Assembly: GCF_003335675.1 (NCBI RefSeq)
Contig: NZ_QPHL01000017.1
Location: 124,001 to 188,000, forward strand
Length of the DNA stretch: 64,000 nucleotides
Direction: 5' to 3'
DNA from: Winogradskyella sp. KYW1333
GTDB lineage: Bacteria; Bacteroidota; Bacteroidia; Flavobacteriales; Flavobacteriaceae
How positions within the stretch are numbered: position 1 is the first letter of the stretch; every line of letters begins with the position of its first letter. Shown piece after piece: positions 38,001 through 42,629 of the stretch. Position numbers and translations under genes: made by a program. Below the pieces are notes generated by a model that was not told where the DNA came from, did no database searches, and was given only the letters and a program-made list of their open reading frames with translations.

Positions 38001-38627
38001 AGTGGTACGGAGGGTCGGTCGGGTGAACAAGGCAACCAAAATGGGGGCCAACGTAAAAATGGTGCTGTTGGACAACAGAACGGTGAAGGAGACTCAAACA
38101 ATAACATGGAGGGTGAGAGCGGTAAAGATGTTAAAAACGGTAAATCAGGTAATAGTGGAAATGGTACAGAAGAAAAGAATGATGGCTATGGAGAGGGCGG
38201 TAATGAAGAACAAAACGCGGAGTTATTTAAGATTTATCAACGCCAGCAACAGTTAAGACAGGCACTAGAAGATAAAATTGTAAAAGATGGAGAAATACAA
38301 TCTGCAGGAGAGTTAATTAAAGAGATGGAGGAAATTGAATTGGATCTTCTAAATTATGGTTTTACAAATCAAACATTACAGAAAATGATGGATCTTCAGC
38401 ATCAGTTACTTAAACTTGAAAACGCTACTTTTTTACAAGGCCAGGATTCTAAGCGAGAATCTAAAACAAATACAGAAGATTTCAATAAAACGAACATAAA
38501 TCAAATCCCAACAGCAAAACAATATTTTAACACTACAGAAATATTGAACAGGCAAGAACTACCTTTGCGAAATCATTTAAAGATGAAAATTCAAGAATAT
38601 TTTAAAAGCACAGATGATAAATTTTAA
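35043..38627 (+). CDS. large DUF4175-family membrane protein with coiled coil and Gly-rich tail
   Basis: A 1194-residue protein, the largest in the window. Membrane segments lie at about 25-48, 55-80 and 150-172. A beta-rich extracytoplasmic region follows (about 175-490). A highly charged K/E coiled coil spans about 495-760, and a Gly/Glu/Lys-rich low-complexity stretch about 945-1060 (EGEKEGEKGDKGQKGQGEKE and more). A Gly run (SGGGGGGDQ) sits at about 780. The last ~100 residues (QQQLRQALEDKI...GELIKEMEEIELDLLNYGF) are helical. This matches DUF4175/ATPase-associated proteins of Bacteroidota, of unknown role. The stop overlaps the ybeY start by 14 bases. Confidence 0.85.
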   Translation: MSNFETIKSKLEAFIKKFYTNELLKGTILFFAIGMFYLIVVLFVEYMLWLSSVGRTILFWAFIAVELGLFIKFIAIPLAYLFKLRKGINYETASKLIGSHFSEVNDKLLNILQLNQNPIQSDLIIASIEQKAIELKPIPFQLAINFKSNLKYLKYATIPITIIALSFLSGKLNWFSDSYERVVNYNTAYEQPAPFQFFVVNESLEAIENKGFKLRIKVAGEVIPENAQINFSDQSYFLQPVATGEFQFVFNLLKQDTEFILSANGVTSKPYSINVLNTPNLVSFNMELDYPAYTKKQDEILKSSGSAIIPEGTKVTWKASTKSTTEVNIYAEDTLRFTKEESGFSAQKRLFNNYNYSISTSNNQLKDHENLAYSINVVKDAYPELKVEVQKDTLGDQTLYFYGQASDDHGLSKLQLVYYPLNNESNKHTEPISISNSNFSEFISSFPDQLELKEGVGYQLYFEVFDNDGINRYKRTKSSVFNYRKLTAEEEEQKQLQEQNKTINDISKTFEKLKEQDKILEEFSKTQKEKDQLNFNDKKKFEEFLKRQKQQEELMKNFNKKLQDNLEEFQNEKKEEDQFKKELQERLKENEEKLKQDEELLKELEELKDKINKEEFTQKLEELAKQNKNKKRSMKQLLELTKRFYVMKKTEKIANQLEDLAKKQEESVKKKNENTKENQERLNEEFEKIQKDIDALKRDDRRLQKPMSVPRDEFIESEINYDQKEAKESLEKKEEIEGEKGEPTPESEQELNKAGERQKKASKKMKQLGDMMKQSLSGGGGGGDQASEDIDMLRQILENLLLFSFDQEALMNTFEEININNNKYGKYIIEQSNLREHFEHVDDSLFALSLRQPKISEKVNTQITEVYFNIDKSLDQLTENRLYQGIASQQYTITASNEISSFLSDVLDNMEMAMNPSPDSGGGQGEQLQDIIMSQEELNKQMEEGVKKNESGKQGEEGREGEGEKEGEKGDKGQKGQGEKEGKQGKSGTEGRSGEQGNQNGGQRKNGAVGQQNGEGDSNNNMEGESGKDVKNGKSGNSGNGTEEKNDGYGEGGNEEQNAELFKIYQRQQQLRQALEDKIVKDGEIQSAGELIKEMEEIELDLLNYGFTNQTLQKMMDLQHQLLKLENATFLQGQDSKRESKTNTEDFNKTNINQIPTAKQYFNTTEILNRQELPLRNHLKMKIQEYFKSTDDKF

Positions 38628-39021
38628 TTTCGAAACTATTTTACATCTAGAAGAAGAAAAGAGATTGAAAGAATGGATTGCTGAAGCAGTAGCTGCGGAG
38701 GGATTTCTTGTAGGCGAAATAAATTACGTGTTTTGTACAGATGAATACTTGCACAAGATTAATCTTCAGTATTTAAATCACGATACGTACACAGATATTA
38801 TTAGCTTCGATTATAGAGTAGGAAAACAGCTACACGGTGACATTTTTATTTCTGTAGATCGAGTTAAGGAAAACGCCACGAAATTTGAGGTTGATTTTAA
38901 TTCTGAATTATTACGCGTTTTGATACATGGTATTCTACATTTTTGTGGCTACAAAGATAAGTTAGATAATGAGGTCAACGCTATGCGGGCCAAAGAGGAT
39001 TACTACGTTGCTCGGTATTAG
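38614..39021 (+). CDS. ybeY: endoribonuclease YbeY (rRNA maturation)
   Basis: A 135-residue metallo-RNase that matures 16S rRNA and supports 70S quality control. The strand YTDIISFDYRVG and GDIFISVDRV are family hallmarks. The metal site normally reads HGxLHxxGYDH; here it is HGILHFCGYKDK, so the third metal-binding His is replaced by Lys or Asp. I believe this variant is common in Flavobacteriia, so the protein is probably still functional. Its start lies inside the end of the DUF4175 gene, pointing to coupling. Confidence 0.92.
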   Translation: MINFNFETILHLEEEKRLKEWIAEAVAAEGFLVGEINYVFCTDEYLHKINLQYLNHDTYTDIISFDYRVGKQLHGDIFISVDRVKENATKFEVDFNSELLRVLIHGILHFCGYKDKLDNEVNAMRAKEDYYVARY

Positions 39022-39041: not shown

Positions 39042-39049
39042 TATATTTG
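39042..39049 (+). promoter_or_regulatory. Bacteroidota -7 box for mnmG
   Basis: TATATTTG fits TAnnTTTG. It lies 58 bases before the mnmG ATG, with the first parS-like palindrome between them, so ParB binding could in principle influence the transcript. Confidence 0.5.
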
Positions 39050-39075
39050 CAAAATTTTTATTTAGAACTAATTTT

Positions 39076-39091
39076 TGTTCCACGTGGAACA
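39076..39091. other. parS-like ParB-binding site 1
   Basis: TGTTCCACGTGGAACA, a perfect 16-base palindrome. It matches the widespread bacterial parS consensus TGTTNCACGTGAAACA except for a G in place of A in the right arm, which here preserves perfect symmetry. Located between the mnmG promoter box and its ATG. Confidence 0.82.
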
Positions 39092-39107
39092 GTTTAACCA
39101 GAAAAGA

Positions 39108-40979
39108 ATGTTTAGTGATGTTTATGATGTTATAGTTGTAGGTGCGGGTCATGCAGGAAGCGAGGCGGCGGCTGCGGCGGCTAACATGGGAAGCAAAACC
39201 TTGTTGATTACAATGAACCTTCAAAACATTGCTCAAATGTCATGTAATCCCGCAATGGGTGGAATAGCCAAAGGGCAGATTGTTCGAGAAATAGATGCTT
39301 TGGGTGGTTATAGCGGTATTGTTTCTGACACATCAGCCATTCAATTTAAAATGCTTAATAAATCTAAAGGCCCCGCCATGTGGAGCCCCAGAGTGCAAAG
39401 TGACAGAATGCGTTTCGCGGAAGACTGGAGGTTGTTGCTTGAGAAGACACCTAACTTAGATTTTTATCAAGAAATGGTTTCCGGGCTTTTATTAGAGGGT
39501 GACAAGATTGTTGGTGTTAAAACCTCTCTTGGAATTGAGGTTAAGGCTAAATCTGTCGTACTAACCAATGGCACCTTTTTAAATGGATTGATTCACATAG
39601 GCGACAAGAACTTTGGTGGTGGTCGTGCCGGAGAAAGGGCCGCAACGGGAATAACGGAAGAGCTTATAGAAATTGGTTTTGATTCTGGACGAATGAAAAC
39701 AGGCACACCCCCTCGAGTTGATGGTCGTTCTTTAGATTATTCTAAAATGATAGAACAACCTGGCGACAAAGACCCTGAGAAATTTTCCTATTTAGATATT
39801 ACAAAACCACTGACAAAACAAAGGTCTTGTCATATGACTTATACTAGCACAGAGGTTCACGATTTGTTGAGAGAAGGTTTTGATCGTTCACCAATGTTTA
39901 ATGGCAGAATTAAAAGTGTGGGTCCTAGATATTGTCCTTCCATTGAAGACAAAATAAACAGATTTGCCGACAAGGACAGGCACCAGTTGTTTGTTGAGCC
40001 CGAAGGTTGGAATACTGTTGAGGTTTATGTAAATGGTTTTTCAACCTCTTTGCCAGAGGATGTGCAGTTTAAGGCATTAAAATCAGTTATTGGTTTTGAG
40101 AATGTGAAATTTTTTAGGCCTGGTTATGCAATTGAGTATGACTATTTTCCACCAACCCAACTAAAACAAACTTTGGAAACAAAGTTGGTTGATGGGTTAT
40201 TTTTTGCTGGGCAGATAAATGGAACAACAGGTTATGAAGAAGCGGCTTCGCAAGGTCTTATGGCGGGAATTAATGCTAGCTTACAGGTGCAGGAAAAAGA
40301 CCCCTTTACCTTAAAAAGAGATGAAGCATACATTGGTGTACTTATAGATGATTTAATCACAAAAGGAACAGAGGAGCCCTACAGAATGTTCACCTCAAGA
40401 GCAGAATACAGGACATTGCTTAGACAAGACAATGCAGATTTTAGATTAACACCAAAGGGGTATGATCTTGGCTTGGCATCAGAAAAGAGGCTAGAGCGAA
40501 TGGAGGAGAAACAAAAGAAATCAGATGCCTTTGTTCAGTTTTTTAGAGAAACAAGCGTAAAGCCTGAAGAGGCAAACCCTGTTTTAGAATCAAAAAATTC
40601 TGCACCCGTAAAACAACAAGACAAGATGTTCAGGCTTTTTGCTAGACCGAATATTACAATTGAAGATGTTAGAAAGTTCAAAGCAGTAGATCAATATATC
40701 CAAGAAAACAATTTAGATCTTGAAGTTATTGAGCAGACAGAAATTCAAGTTAAGTATGCGGGTTATATTGAAAAGGAAAAAAACAACGCTGACAAACTGA
40801 ATAGGCTAGAAAATCTTAAGATCCCTAAAGGGTTTGATTATTCAAGATTAAAATCTATGAGTATGGAGGCTAGGCAAAAATTAACAGAAATTCAACCAGT
40901 AACCATTTCTCAAGCGTCAAGAATTAGTGGTGTATCACCAAACGACATTTCTGTTTTATTAGTTTATTTAGGGAGATAA
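39108..40979 (+). CDS. mnmG: tRNA uridine-5-carboxymethylaminomethyl modification enzyme MnmG (GidA)
   Basis: A 623-residue FAD enzyme that works with MnmE to modify U34 of tRNAs. I chose the ATG at 39108 (MFSDVYDVIVVGAGHAG). A TTG at 39075 would add 11 residues encoded by the parS palindrome and is unlikely. The FAD motif GAGHAGSEAAAAAANMG, the SCNPAMGGIAKGQIVREIDALGG region (key residues C, G-G-I-A-K-G) and GTTGYEEAASQGLMAGINA are diagnostic. The C-terminal MnmE/tRNA-binding domain ends normally. It is bracketed by two parS-like sites. In many bacteria gidA lies near oriC, which agrees with this setting. Confidence 0.96.
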   Translation: MFSDVYDVIVVGAGHAGSEAAAAAANMGSKTLLITMNLQNIAQMSCNPAMGGIAKGQIVREIDALGGYSGIVSDTSAIQFKMLNKSKGPAMWSPRVQSDRMRFAEDWRLLLEKTPNLDFYQEMVSGLLLEGDKIVGVKTSLGIEVKAKSVVLTNGTFLNGLIHIGDKNFGGGRAGERAATGITEELIEIGFDSGRMKTGTPPRVDGRSLDYSKMIEQPGDKDPEKFSYLDITKPLTKQRSCHMTYTSTEVHDLLREGFDRSPMFNGRIKSVGPRYCPSIEDKINRFADKDRHQLFVEPEGWNTVEVYVNGFSTSLPEDVQFKALKSVIGFENVKFFRPGYAIEYDYFPPTQLKQTLETKLVDGLFFAGQINGTTGYEEAASQGLMAGINASLQVQEKDPFTLKRDEAYIGVLIDDLITKGTEEPYRMFTSRAEYRTLLRQDNADFRLTPKGYDLGLASEKRLERMEEKQKKSDAFVQFFRETSVKPEEANPVLESKNSAPVKQQDKMFRLFARPNITIEDVRKFKAVDQYIQENNLDLEVIEQTEIQVKYAGYIEKEKNNADKLNRLENLKIPKGFDYSRLKSMSMEARQKLTEIQPVTISQASRISGVSPNDISVLLVYLGR

Positions 40980-40983
40980 TTAA

Positions 40984-40999
40984 TGTTCCACGTGAAACA
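40984..40999. other. parS-like ParB-binding site 2
   Basis: TGTTCCACGTGAAACA matches the parS consensus TGTTNCACGTGAAACA at every position, and symmetry extends one base on each side. It lies five bases after the mnmG stop. Confidence 0.87.
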
Positions 41000-41021: not shown

Positions 41022-41885
41022 ATGAATGGAAAAATGAACCGATTAACTTATTTAAAGGTAAAAGACCATTCAGTTTCTGGAGAAGAATTTCAATTGATTT
41101 TTAATGAGGACACGGAAATACTTGAAACCTTTCCAGCGCCAAATGAGGATCAATTATCTAAATACTATAAAAGTGAAGATTATATTTCACACACGGATTC
41201 TAAGCGAAATTTATTTGAGCGTGTATACCACATAATTAGATCCAGAGCCTTAAAAAAGAAATTGCGGTTAATCAATTCCTTTGGAAATGAATCAAAACAA
41301 CTTTTAGATGTTGGATGTGGCACGGGCGATTTTTTAAAAATTGCGTTAACAGATGGCTGGACAGTTACTGGAATTGAACCTAACGAGCAAGCAAGAAAAA
41401 TTGCAAATGTCAAAACCAATCAAAACGTTTTTGAAATTGACCACCTTGACAATCTGAAAGAACACACCTTCGATGTTATTACGCTTTGGCATGTCTTAGA
41501 GCATTTGCCGAAATTAGATACTCACATTCAACTTTTTAGAAAGCTGTTAAAACCAAACGGATTATTGATTATAGCAGTTCCCAATTATAAAAGTTATGAC
41601 GCTGCCCACTATAAAGAGTTTTGGGCGGCATATGATGTTCCAAGACACCTGTGGCATTTTTCAAGAAAATCAATCAATAAATTATTTCAGAAGGAGAACT
41701 TTACACTTATTAAAACTATACCATTAATCTTTGACGCCTATTACGTTAGTTTGCTTTCTGAAAAATATAAGACAGGATATATGAATCCGTTAAAAGCATT
41801 TTGGGTTGGTCTGAAATCTAATTACCGGGCAAGGCACAATAATGACTACTCTTCTTTAATTTATGTCTTAAAACAAACCAATTAA
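41022..41885 (+). CDS. class I SAM-dependent methyltransferase
   Basis: A 287-residue protein. Motif I LLDVGCGTGDFLKIA, the acidic strand VTGIEPNEQARKIA, and the post-motif VITLWHVLEHLPK are classical for the Rossmann-fold methyltransferase_11/23 group. An N-terminal ~90-residue part (YLKVKDHSVSGEEFQLIFNE) is a small domain of the type that precedes such methyltransferases, here without the zinc Cys residues. The substrate is unknown, possibly a small molecule or glycan. It lies just after mnmG and parS site 2. Confidence 0.82.
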   Translation: MNGKMNRLTYLKVKDHSVSGEEFQLIFNEDTEILETFPAPNEDQLSKYYKSEDYISHTDSKRNLFERVYHIIRSRALKKKLRLINSFGNESKQLLDVGCGTGDFLKIALTDGWTVTGIEPNEQARKIANVKTNQNVFEIDHLDNLKEHTFDVITLWHVLEHLPKLDTHIQLFRKLLKPNGLLIIAVPNYKSYDAAHYKEFWAAYDVPRHLWHFSRKSINKLFQKENFTLIKTIPLIFDAYYVSLLSEKYKTGYMNPLKAFWVGLKSNYRARHNNDYSSLIYVLKQTN

Positions 41886-42101: not shown

Positions 42102-42629
42102 ATGAAAAATTTAATCCTTTTATTGTTTATTACCTTGACAACTATGGCTTGTCAAGAGGAACAAAAAATAGCTTTTGTAGATAACGCTAAAGTTGTTAAT
42201 GAATATCAAAAGAAAAAAGACTTTGAGGAGAAATTCAAAGCGAAAATAGAAACCTTTAATAAAAAAGCTGACAGCTTGCAGCAAGCAATTCAAGTTGAGG
42301 CACAATTGTTTCAATCGCGCGCCTCTAAAATGAAACAAAACAAAGCAGAGGAAGAGTACAATGCACTAGTTCAGAAAAAACAAATGCAGGATTATCAACT
42401 TGGTAATGAGGAAAAGCTATTACAGGCAGAAGGACAAAAGGAAATTGATACTCTGGTTAAACAAGTAAAAACGTTTATAAAAGACTACGGAAAACAAAAT
42501 GGATATACGTTTATACTAGGCGCCAATGAAGCGGGTAGTGTTCTCTATGGGTCTGACGCTAAGGATATTACAGATAAAATTATAGCAGAACTTAATAAGG
42601 AAGAGGATAGTTCTGGCACAAAAGAATAG
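42102..42629 (+). CDS. OmpH/Skp-family chaperone, lipoprotein form
   Basis: A 175-residue protein with a lipoprotein signal (MKNLILLLFITLTTMAC, Cys17). The mature start IAFVDNAKVVNEYQKKKDFEEKF resembles the Skp/OmpH N-terminal strand, followed by a long charged coiled coil (about 45-125) and the returning strand GYTFILGANEAGSVLYG. Skp-like proteins hold unfolded outer-membrane proteins in the periplasm. A lipid anchor differs from the soluble E. coli Skp. A strong terminator follows. Confidence 0.85.
   Translation: MKNLILLLFITLTTMACQEEQKIAFVDNAKVVNEYQKKKDFEEKFKAKIETFNKKADSLQQAIQVEAQLFQSRASKMKQNKAEEEYNALVQKKQMQDYQLGNEEKLLQAEGQKEIDTLVKQVKTFIKDYGKQNGYTFILGANEAGSVLYGSDAKDITDKIIAELNKEEDSSGTKE

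What the first reader, a model, noticed from the sequence alone, without database searches (positions are those of the whole stretch)
39076..40999. Two parS-like palindromes bracket mnmG
TGTTCCACGTGGAACA (39076-39091) and TGTTCCACGTGAAACA (40984-40999) lie on either side of mnmG. The second matches the bacterial parS consensus TGTTNCACGTGAAACA fully. The first is a perfectly symmetric variant and sits between the mnmG promoter box and its start codon. ParB-parS complexes normally mark the origin-proximal part of the chromosome. A pair tied to the gidA/mnmG gene is a testable clue to origin position and to ParB control of a tRNA-modification gene.
Basis: partly seen in the sequence, partly recalled or inferred. 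Interest (0 to 1): 0.72.

Follow-up and report, generated by a model that had tools for sequence, protein, structure and literature searches.

The report
Centromere sites bracketing one tRNA-modification gene
The two palindromes on either side of the tRNA-modification gene mnmG are the only two exact parS (bacterial centromere) matches in this genome assembly; sites beside mnmG recur in relatives across its phylum, and in one genus the sites and mnmG have parted and the sites sit by the next gene instead, so they are likely where the protein ParB grips the chromosome for segregation and probably not switches for mnmG.

Summary
TGTTCCACGTGGAACA (39076) and TGTTCCACGTGAAACA (40984) are the only exact TGTTYCACGTGRAACA sites in the 2.81 Mb assembly, which also encodes a chromosomal-type ParA-ParB. 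In 80 named mnmG loci, 75 carry a site (<=2 mismatches) on both sides of mnmG. In 100 Flavobacteriaceae genera, 93 genomes have 1-3 exact sites; 71 of the 75 listed lie within 500 bp of mnmG. Other classes of the phylum also have sites beside mnmG; in three loci read, rsmG follows (gidA-parS-gidB). parB and dnaA are far away (at least 0.21 of the genome in 18 of 18 genomes). The telling case is one genus where mnmG and the sites have parted: in 15 of 15 genomes with exact sites these sit by the methyltransferase that normally follows mnmG, and 0 of 15 fetched mnmG loci have one. So they are best read as the chromosome's centromere, not as mnmG operators. GC skew puts them within 0-12% of the chromosome from the origin in three of three sampled genomes, not at it. 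ParB binding is untested. The 2007 parS survey could not be read, so novelty is provisional.

The parts
39076..39091 (.). left parS, TGTTCCACGTGGAACA, perfectly symmetric; 5' of mnmG, with 19 bases between it and the ATG
   Evidence: a site <=2 mismatches within 500 bp upstream of mnmG in 78 of 80 named loci, median offset -35
40984..40999 (.). right parS, TGTTCCACGTGAAACA, 4 bases after the mnmG stop, in the mnmG-methyltransferase gap
   Evidence: a site <=2 mismatches within 250 bp after the mnmG stop in 76 of 80 named loci
39111..40979 (+). mnmG (gidA), the bracketed gene
   Evidence: TIGR00136, E 1.2e-257
41022..41885 (+). class I methyltransferase gene; conserved downstream neighbour, and the gene that the sites sit by in genus g18
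   Evidence: Methyltransf_23 E 6.3e-31; synteny
38614..39021 (+). ybeY, conserved upstream neighbour in most Flavobacteriales loci
   Evidence: YbeY E 9.2e-28
42102..42629 (+). OmpH/Skp-like gene, next downstream neighbour
   Evidence: OmpH E 1e-23
39042..39049 (+). TATATTTG, possible -7 promoter box of mnmG (the Bacteroidetes TAnnTTTG box is recalled, not from a call)
   Evidence: not enriched in relatives

Best explanation
The two palindromes are the only exact parS matches in this genome assembly and are likely the ParB-binding sites of its chromosomal ParABS system, that is, a predicted minimal, origin-proximal centromere kept beside mnmG. Predicted working (taken from the known family): ParB, made from the distant parAB operon, loads as a CTP-dependent clamp at the two sites, slides over mnmG and its neighbours, and ParA then moves this complex so that newly copied origin regions separate. 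Shown here: sequence, number and placement of the sites; a ParB with most expected contact residues; sites beside mnmG in sampled genomes of several classes of the phylum; rsmG after mnmG and the site in three outgroup loci; and a genus where the sites and mnmG have parted. Inferred: binding, segregation, origin proximity in this genome, and descent of the address from an ancestral gidA-parS-gidB neighbourhood.
For: (1) Only two exact sites in 2.81 Mb, 1.9 kb apart. (2) parA-parB operon on another contig; ParB best matches chromosomal ParB/Spo0J structures (E 2.9e-53 to 6.7e-49; Noc structures follow at 4e-46), has GERR, and keeps Q162, G170, K171, R173, N178, G201, R204 by spacing, with K for S at 172; R173 and G201 separate parS-binding ParB from Noc (PMC7383237 passages). 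(3) 80 loci fetched by MnmG, not by parS: both sides 75 of 80; reversed-pattern control 0 near mnmG and 3 elsewhere in 1.6 Mb. (4) 100 genera: exact sites per genome 0/1/2/3 in 7/46/43/4, control 0 in all 100; 71 of 75 listed sites within 500 bp of mnmG; 6 of the 7 genomes without an exact site have the inner 14-mer (0-1 mismatch) on both sides of mnmG (the reversed 14-mer has 0-3 chance matches per genome at 1 mismatch). (5) Phylum sample: site <=1 mismatch within 300 bp of mnmG in 26 of 27 other-class, 11 of 16 same-class, 2 of 2 same-order and 4 of 5 family genomes, control 0. (6) Genus g18: exact sites in 15 of 16 genomes, all 15 by the methyltransferase; 0 of 15 fetched mnmG loci have a site at <=2 mismatches. 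(7) Origin-proximal by coarse skew fit in G062, G094 and G017.
Against: No binding data. GC skew is weak: on the own contig the cumulative minimum is at 37.8 kb, 125 kb from mnmG, but skew is flat from 0 to 150 kb and the contig ends there; in G062 it is flat from 1.01 to 1.33 Mb. Skew is positive on both sides of mnmG in most loci (47 and 54 of 63), so the origin is not at the sites. In G017 both the sites and mnmG are origin-proximal, so that genus does not show which of them holds the origin address. Three of 16 same-class genomes (L200, L206, L210) and one of 27 other-class (L215) have no site within 300 bp of mnmG, and in the same class the sites are upstream only in 12 of 16. Residue 172 differs from Caulobacter ParB.
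Confidence: 0.88

Rival explanations
1. The sites are operators: ParB bound at the 5' site represses or tunes mnmG, coupling tRNA modification to chromosome copy or segregation, and this regulation is why they are kept.
For: The left site lies shortly before mnmG (median offset -35 in relatives), behind a TATATTTG box in this window. Chromosomal ParB bound at parS can lower expression of nearby genes in P. aeruginosa (test plasmid) and S. pneumoniae (passages of PMC7022226).
Against: In genus g18 none of 15 fetched mnmG loci has a site, while the sites sit by the methyltransferase. Of 27 other-class genomes 20 have sites only downstream of mnmG. Promoter boxes are not enriched upstream of the left site.
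Confidence: 0.07
2. The palindromes act as RNA hairpins (leader element and terminator) of the mnmG transcript.
For: A symmetric 16-mer can fold as a 6-bp stem with a 4-base loop, and both lie next to the gene.
Against: Among sites taken at <=2 mismatches the centre CACGTG is 97-100% conserved, loop included, while variation falls at positions 1, 5, 12 and 16, which would be stem; 45 of 76 right sites are not fully self-complementary, the window's own included. No T-run longer than three directly follows the right site. Rfam at its gathering scores finds only a tRNA in the window.
Confidence: 0.02
3. The sites are passive relics of the old gidA-gidB-parAB region, conserved only with the gene block and without current function.
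For: Three outgroup loci have a site between mnmG and rsmG, so the address looks inherited; ybeY-mnmG-methyltransferase synteny is common in Flavobacteriales.
Against: The 16-mer stays nearly exact across the sampled phylum while its distance to mnmG varies (about -18 to -174 bp upstream); relics would decay. A ParB gene is present in 19 of 19 genomes tested. Some Flavobacterium loci have multiplied the sites (13 at <=2 mismatches in L041).
Confidence: 0.03

Closest known systems
Chromosomal ParABS centromere (parS of B. subtilis, Caulobacter, P. aeruginosa)
   Same: 16-bp TGTTTCACGTGAAACA-type palindrome, ParB with GERR and HTH, clustered sites, origin-proximal by coarse skew
   Different: Mostly one or two exact sites per genome, beside one housekeeping gene across a family (on both sides of it in 75 of 80 named loci); parB and dnaA both at least 0.21 of the genome away in 18 of 18 genomes, whereas in many bacteria (recalled) parS, parAB, gidA/gidB and oriC sit together
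parS clusters of gut bacteria located with Hi-C (PMC10197239, including Bacteroides caecimuris and Muribaculum intestinale)
   Same: parS clusters lie in the origin domain, and the origin does not always correlate with dnaA (passages read)
   Different: In that paper the parS cluster itself helped to choose the origin; mnmG and gidA are not mentioned in its main text (0 occurrences); those genomes were not examined here
Noc and its NBS sites
   Same: ParB-family protein on a 16-bp palindrome
   Different: Sites here are parS type; the own ParB has R173 and G201, not Q173 and R201

Membership tests
parS centromere of a chromosomal ParABS system | 16-bp palindrome matching TGTTYCACGTGRAACA | tested here: met
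   two exact sites
parS centromere of a chromosomal ParABS system | genome encodes chromosomal-type ParB with ParA next to it | tested here: met
   ParB_N E 8.8e-34; ParA-type ATPase (AAA_31 E 5.2e-68) directly upstream, frames overlapping
parS centromere of a chromosomal ParABS system | ParB keeps parS-contact residues | tested here: met
   7 of 8, placed by residue spacing; position 172 is K, not S (contact list from PMC7383237)
parS centromere of a chromosomal ParABS system | sites clustered, not scattered over the chromosome | tested here: met
   (own genome); 71 of 75 listed sites within 500 bp of mnmG in the family sample, the other four in clusters too
parS centromere of a chromosomal ParABS system | cluster near the replication origin | tested here: inconclusive
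   skew fits put the origin 0-12% of the chromosome away in 3 of 3 sampled genomes, but the fits are coarse and the own genome is unresolved
parS centromere of a chromosomal ParABS system | ParB binds and spreads from the sites in vivo; loss impairs segregation | not testable with these tools
   needs ChIP-seq, imaging and mutants
Noc/NBS | NBS-type site (TATTTCCCGGGAAATA, recalled) and Q173/R201 in the protein | tested here: not met
   sites have CACGTG centres; own ParB has R173 and G201
RNA hairpin / terminator element | pairing kept, loop free to vary | tested here: not met
   loop among the most conserved positions; 45 of 76 right sites not fully self-complementary
ParB-controlled operator of mnmG | site travels with mnmG | tested here: not met
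   genus g18: 0 of 15 fetched mnmG loci have a site; 15 of 15 site loci carry the methyltransferase. Met in most other genera, so this speaks against need, not against any effect

The most novel reading that the evidence does not exclude
The mnmG flank is the ancestral centromere address of the whole phylum Bacteroidota: parS was set between gidA and gidB before the classes split and has been inherited there ever since, while rsmG, parAB and dnaA went to distant parts of the chromosome. Bracketing a transcribed leading-strand gene is then part of the centromere's design: two ParB loaders face each other across one transcription unit. Where mnmG and the sites parted, in genus g18, a bracket was re-formed around the methyltransferase gene in at least 5 of 15 genomes.
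Probability: 0.3. Interest if true: 0.8.

Novelty: new variant of a known kind. Interest (0 to 1): 0.62.

Why it matters
If true, it gives a one-gene address for the centromere of a large phylum and a sequence-only handle on origin-proximal DNA in draft genomes and metagenomes, where dnaA would mislead (dnaA lies 0.21-0.47 of the genome from mnmG in 18 of 18 genomes). It also offers a natural experiment that separates centromere function from regulation of the neighbouring gene, and asks why parAB sits so far from its own centromere.

Tried and rejected
ParB control of mnmG: rejected as the reason for the sites (genus g18). RNA hairpin: rejected on the conservation pattern. Sites at the parAB or dnaA loci: none at <=1 mismatch in the own genome. 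DnaA-box clusters (3 or more TTATCCACA in 400 bp) to pin the origin: none in C9, in G062 0.97-1.41 Mb or in the other loci then held; led nowhere. Promoter-box enrichment: negative.

Which piece moved in genus g18 is not settled: in 2 of 15 mnmG loci (L277, L280) ybeY is still upstream of mnmG, while the methyltransferase (and in 5 of 15 site loci the OmpH/Skp gene in view) is with the sites. The left-hand site is gone from mnmG there.

Matches outside the mnmG flanks: the real pattern has 35 at <=2 mismatches (5 exact) in the rest of the 80 named loci, 8 of them in the L041 array, the others spread over 25 loci, mostly one each; 9 in the rest of the 50 phylum loci. G099, the only one of 100 family genomes without mnmG, also lacks the sites and a close methyltransferase homologue (best E 1.7e-6, 28% identity): possibly an assembly gap, so not used either way. 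G227 (genus g18) has no exact site and was not searched for near matches; the mnmG locus of G221 was not fetched.

rests on 50 of 118 genomes: all 16 same-class and both same-order genomes, 5 of 12 family genomes (own genome included) and 27 of 88 other-class ones (the 20 best-scoring plus 7 single-contig ones that I picked; 14 of the 27 are one family, f21). The 80 named loci are the best 80 of 590 confirmed. Genome sizes are mostly rounded, and where a genome had two ParB_N proteins (4 of 19) the best was used. Papers PMC10197239, PMC7383237, PMC7333895, PMC7022226 and PMC13342612 were seen as search passages only; Livny 2007 (PMC2168934) is not held. No report of a parS-mnmG bracket showed in the listings of searches (open-licence papers only; one search was for ParB residues).

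Full report
What is there. The window carries TGTTCCACGTGGAACA at 39076-39091 and TGTTCCACGTGAAACA at 40984-40999, on either side of mnmG (ATG 39111, stop ends 40979). The gene order is ybeY - site - mnmG - site - methyltransferase - OmpH/Skp-like. At <=3 mismatches to the symmetric form only these two occur in the window, against 0.18 expected.

Whole genome. In the 2,811,825-base, 17-contig assembly the pattern TGTTYCACGTGRAACA occurs exactly twice, both here; one 1-mismatch site lies elsewhere, inside an open frame that looks like an alpha-glucosidase; the reversed pattern gives none. There is one ParB_N protein, on contig C6, directly after a ParA-type ATPase. dnaA is on contig C8. The protein best matches solved chromosomal ParB/Spo0J structures, with Noc structures next and, counted by spacing from the HTH glycine, keeps Q162, G170, K171, R173, N178, G201 and R204, with K at 172 where Caulobacter has S (contact list from passages of PMC7383237). 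The nearest named mnmG relatives are Winogradskyella (92, 90 and 88% identity).

Conservation in named genomes. I fetched 80 loci by MnmG similarity, so without looking for parS (best 80 of 590). A site with <=2 mismatches lies within 500 bp upstream in 78, within 250 bp after the stop in 76, and on both sides in 75 of 80; at <=1 mismatch 74, 69 and 67. The reversed pattern has no match in these flanks and 3 (at 2 mismatches) in the rest of 1.6 Mb; the real pattern has 35 in the rest, 8 of them in one array. The five loci outside the 75 are L090 (Capnocytophaga MAG, none), L091, L103 and L105 (left only) and L096 (right only). The CACGTG core is 97-100% conserved; variation is at positions 1, 5, 12 and 16. 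Some Flavobacterium loci have arrays: L041 has 13 sites at <=2 mismatches, part of them in a 117-bp tandem repeat.

Conservation in 100 genera. One genome per genus of the family gives 0, 1, 2 or 3 exact sites in 7, 46, 43 and 4 genomes; the control pattern gives 0 in all 100. Of the 75 sites that the tool listed (47 genomes; 144 sites in all), 71 lie within 500 bp of mnmG; the others are three in G017 and one in G056, 1.6 kb off. Of the seven genomes without an exact site, six have the inner 14-mer (0 or 1 mismatch) on both sides of mnmG; the seventh, G099, has no mnmG.

Depth. In a phylum sample a site (<=1 mismatch) lies within 300 bp of mnmG in 26 of 27 genomes of other classes, 11 of 16 of the same class, 2 of 2 of the same order and 4 of 5 of the family; at <=2 mismatches 26, 13, 2 and 5; control 0. 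Of the 27, 14 are one family. In other classes the site is mostly downstream only (20 of 27); in the same class mostly upstream only (12 of 16); both sides in 4 of 27 and 1 of 16. The full bracket is thus mainly a Flavobacteriales feature; the mnmG address is wider. In three other-class loci that I read, L172, L191 and L194, the gene after mnmG and the site is rsmG (GidB in Pfam, E 4e-22 to 1e-35). This points to an ancestral gidA-parS-gidB order; the direction of change is my inference, no tree was made.

Natural experiment. In G017 mnmG (1.277 Mb) and the sites (0.997-0.999 Mb) are 279 kb apart. The sites lie beside the methyltransferase and OmpH/Skp-like genes that elsewhere follow mnmG. 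I then searched 16 genomes of that genus: 15 have exact sites, and in all 15 the site locus contains the methyltransferase with a site (<=2 mismatches) on its 5' side, where the right-hand mnmG site would be; in 5 of 15 (L262, L264, L268, L269, L272) sites also lie on its other side. None of 15 fetched mnmG loci (about 1.5 kb of flank each) has a site. In 2 of these 15 ybeY is still upstream of mnmG, so the break fell between mnmG and the methyltransferase and it cannot be said which piece moved. The sites do not follow mnmG there, and mnmG does without them. This is the strongest evidence against regulation of mnmG as their purpose. G017's mnmG is 80% identical to that of L090 (tblastx), so the genus may be Capnocytophaga or near it (inference).

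Origin. In 18 genomes (17 single-contig, 1 of two contigs) dnaA is 0.21-0.47 and parB 0.21-0.42 of the genome from mnmG. A two-step fit to GC skew in 20 stretches each places the origin at 1.22-1.36 Mb in G062 (sites at 1.006), 1.24-1.56 in G094 (1.236) and 1.00-1.24 in G017 (sites 0.998, mnmG 1.277), that is 0-12% of the chromosome from the sites, with dnaA and parB farther in each. A closer look at G062 shows a flat stretch of skew from 1.01 to 1.33 Mb, and on the own contig the skew is flat from 0 to 150 kb, with its cumulative minimum at 37.8 kb, and rises after mnmG. Skew is positive in the mnmG direction on both sides in 47 and 54 of 63 loci, which fits an origin upstream of mnmG, not at it. 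PMC10197239 reports that in gut bacteria the origin does not always correlate with dnaA; there the parS cluster helped to choose the origin, with coverage in support (passages).

Judgement. The family assignment, parS of a chromosomal ParABS system, passes the sequence tests made; the proximity test is coarse and binding is untested. The mechanism (ParB loading, sliding, ParA-driven segregation) is taken from the known family. What is unusual is the stable one-gene address with parAB and dnaA far off. I found no report of it in the listings of the open-licence library, but the main survey of parS sites (Livny et al. 2007) could not be read.

Noticed in passing
L041 8809-9935 (Flavobacterium sp. 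MC2016-06), upstream of mnmG: A large parS array: six sites 39-51 bp apart followed by a 117-bp tandem repeat, four of whose units carry TGTTCCACATGGAACA (centre CACATG) and one TGTTCTACATGGAACA.
   Followed up: partly
L039 (Kordia), L067, L041, G046: Sites beside mnmG with an off-palindrome CACATG centre recur in separate lineages; ParB there may tolerate or prefer it.
   Followed up: no
G099 (family genome, single contig 2.7 Mb): mnmG, exact parS and a close methyltransferase homologue all appear to be missing together; assembly gap or real loss not decided.
   Followed up: partly
18 family genomes: dnaA and parB both lie at least 0.21 of the genome from mnmG in every genome, as if kept away from the origin-proximal part.
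   Followed up: partly
window 39075-39110: The mnmG reading frame is open through the left parS from a TTG (MFHVEQ...), so gene callers may place the start inside the site.
   Followed up: no
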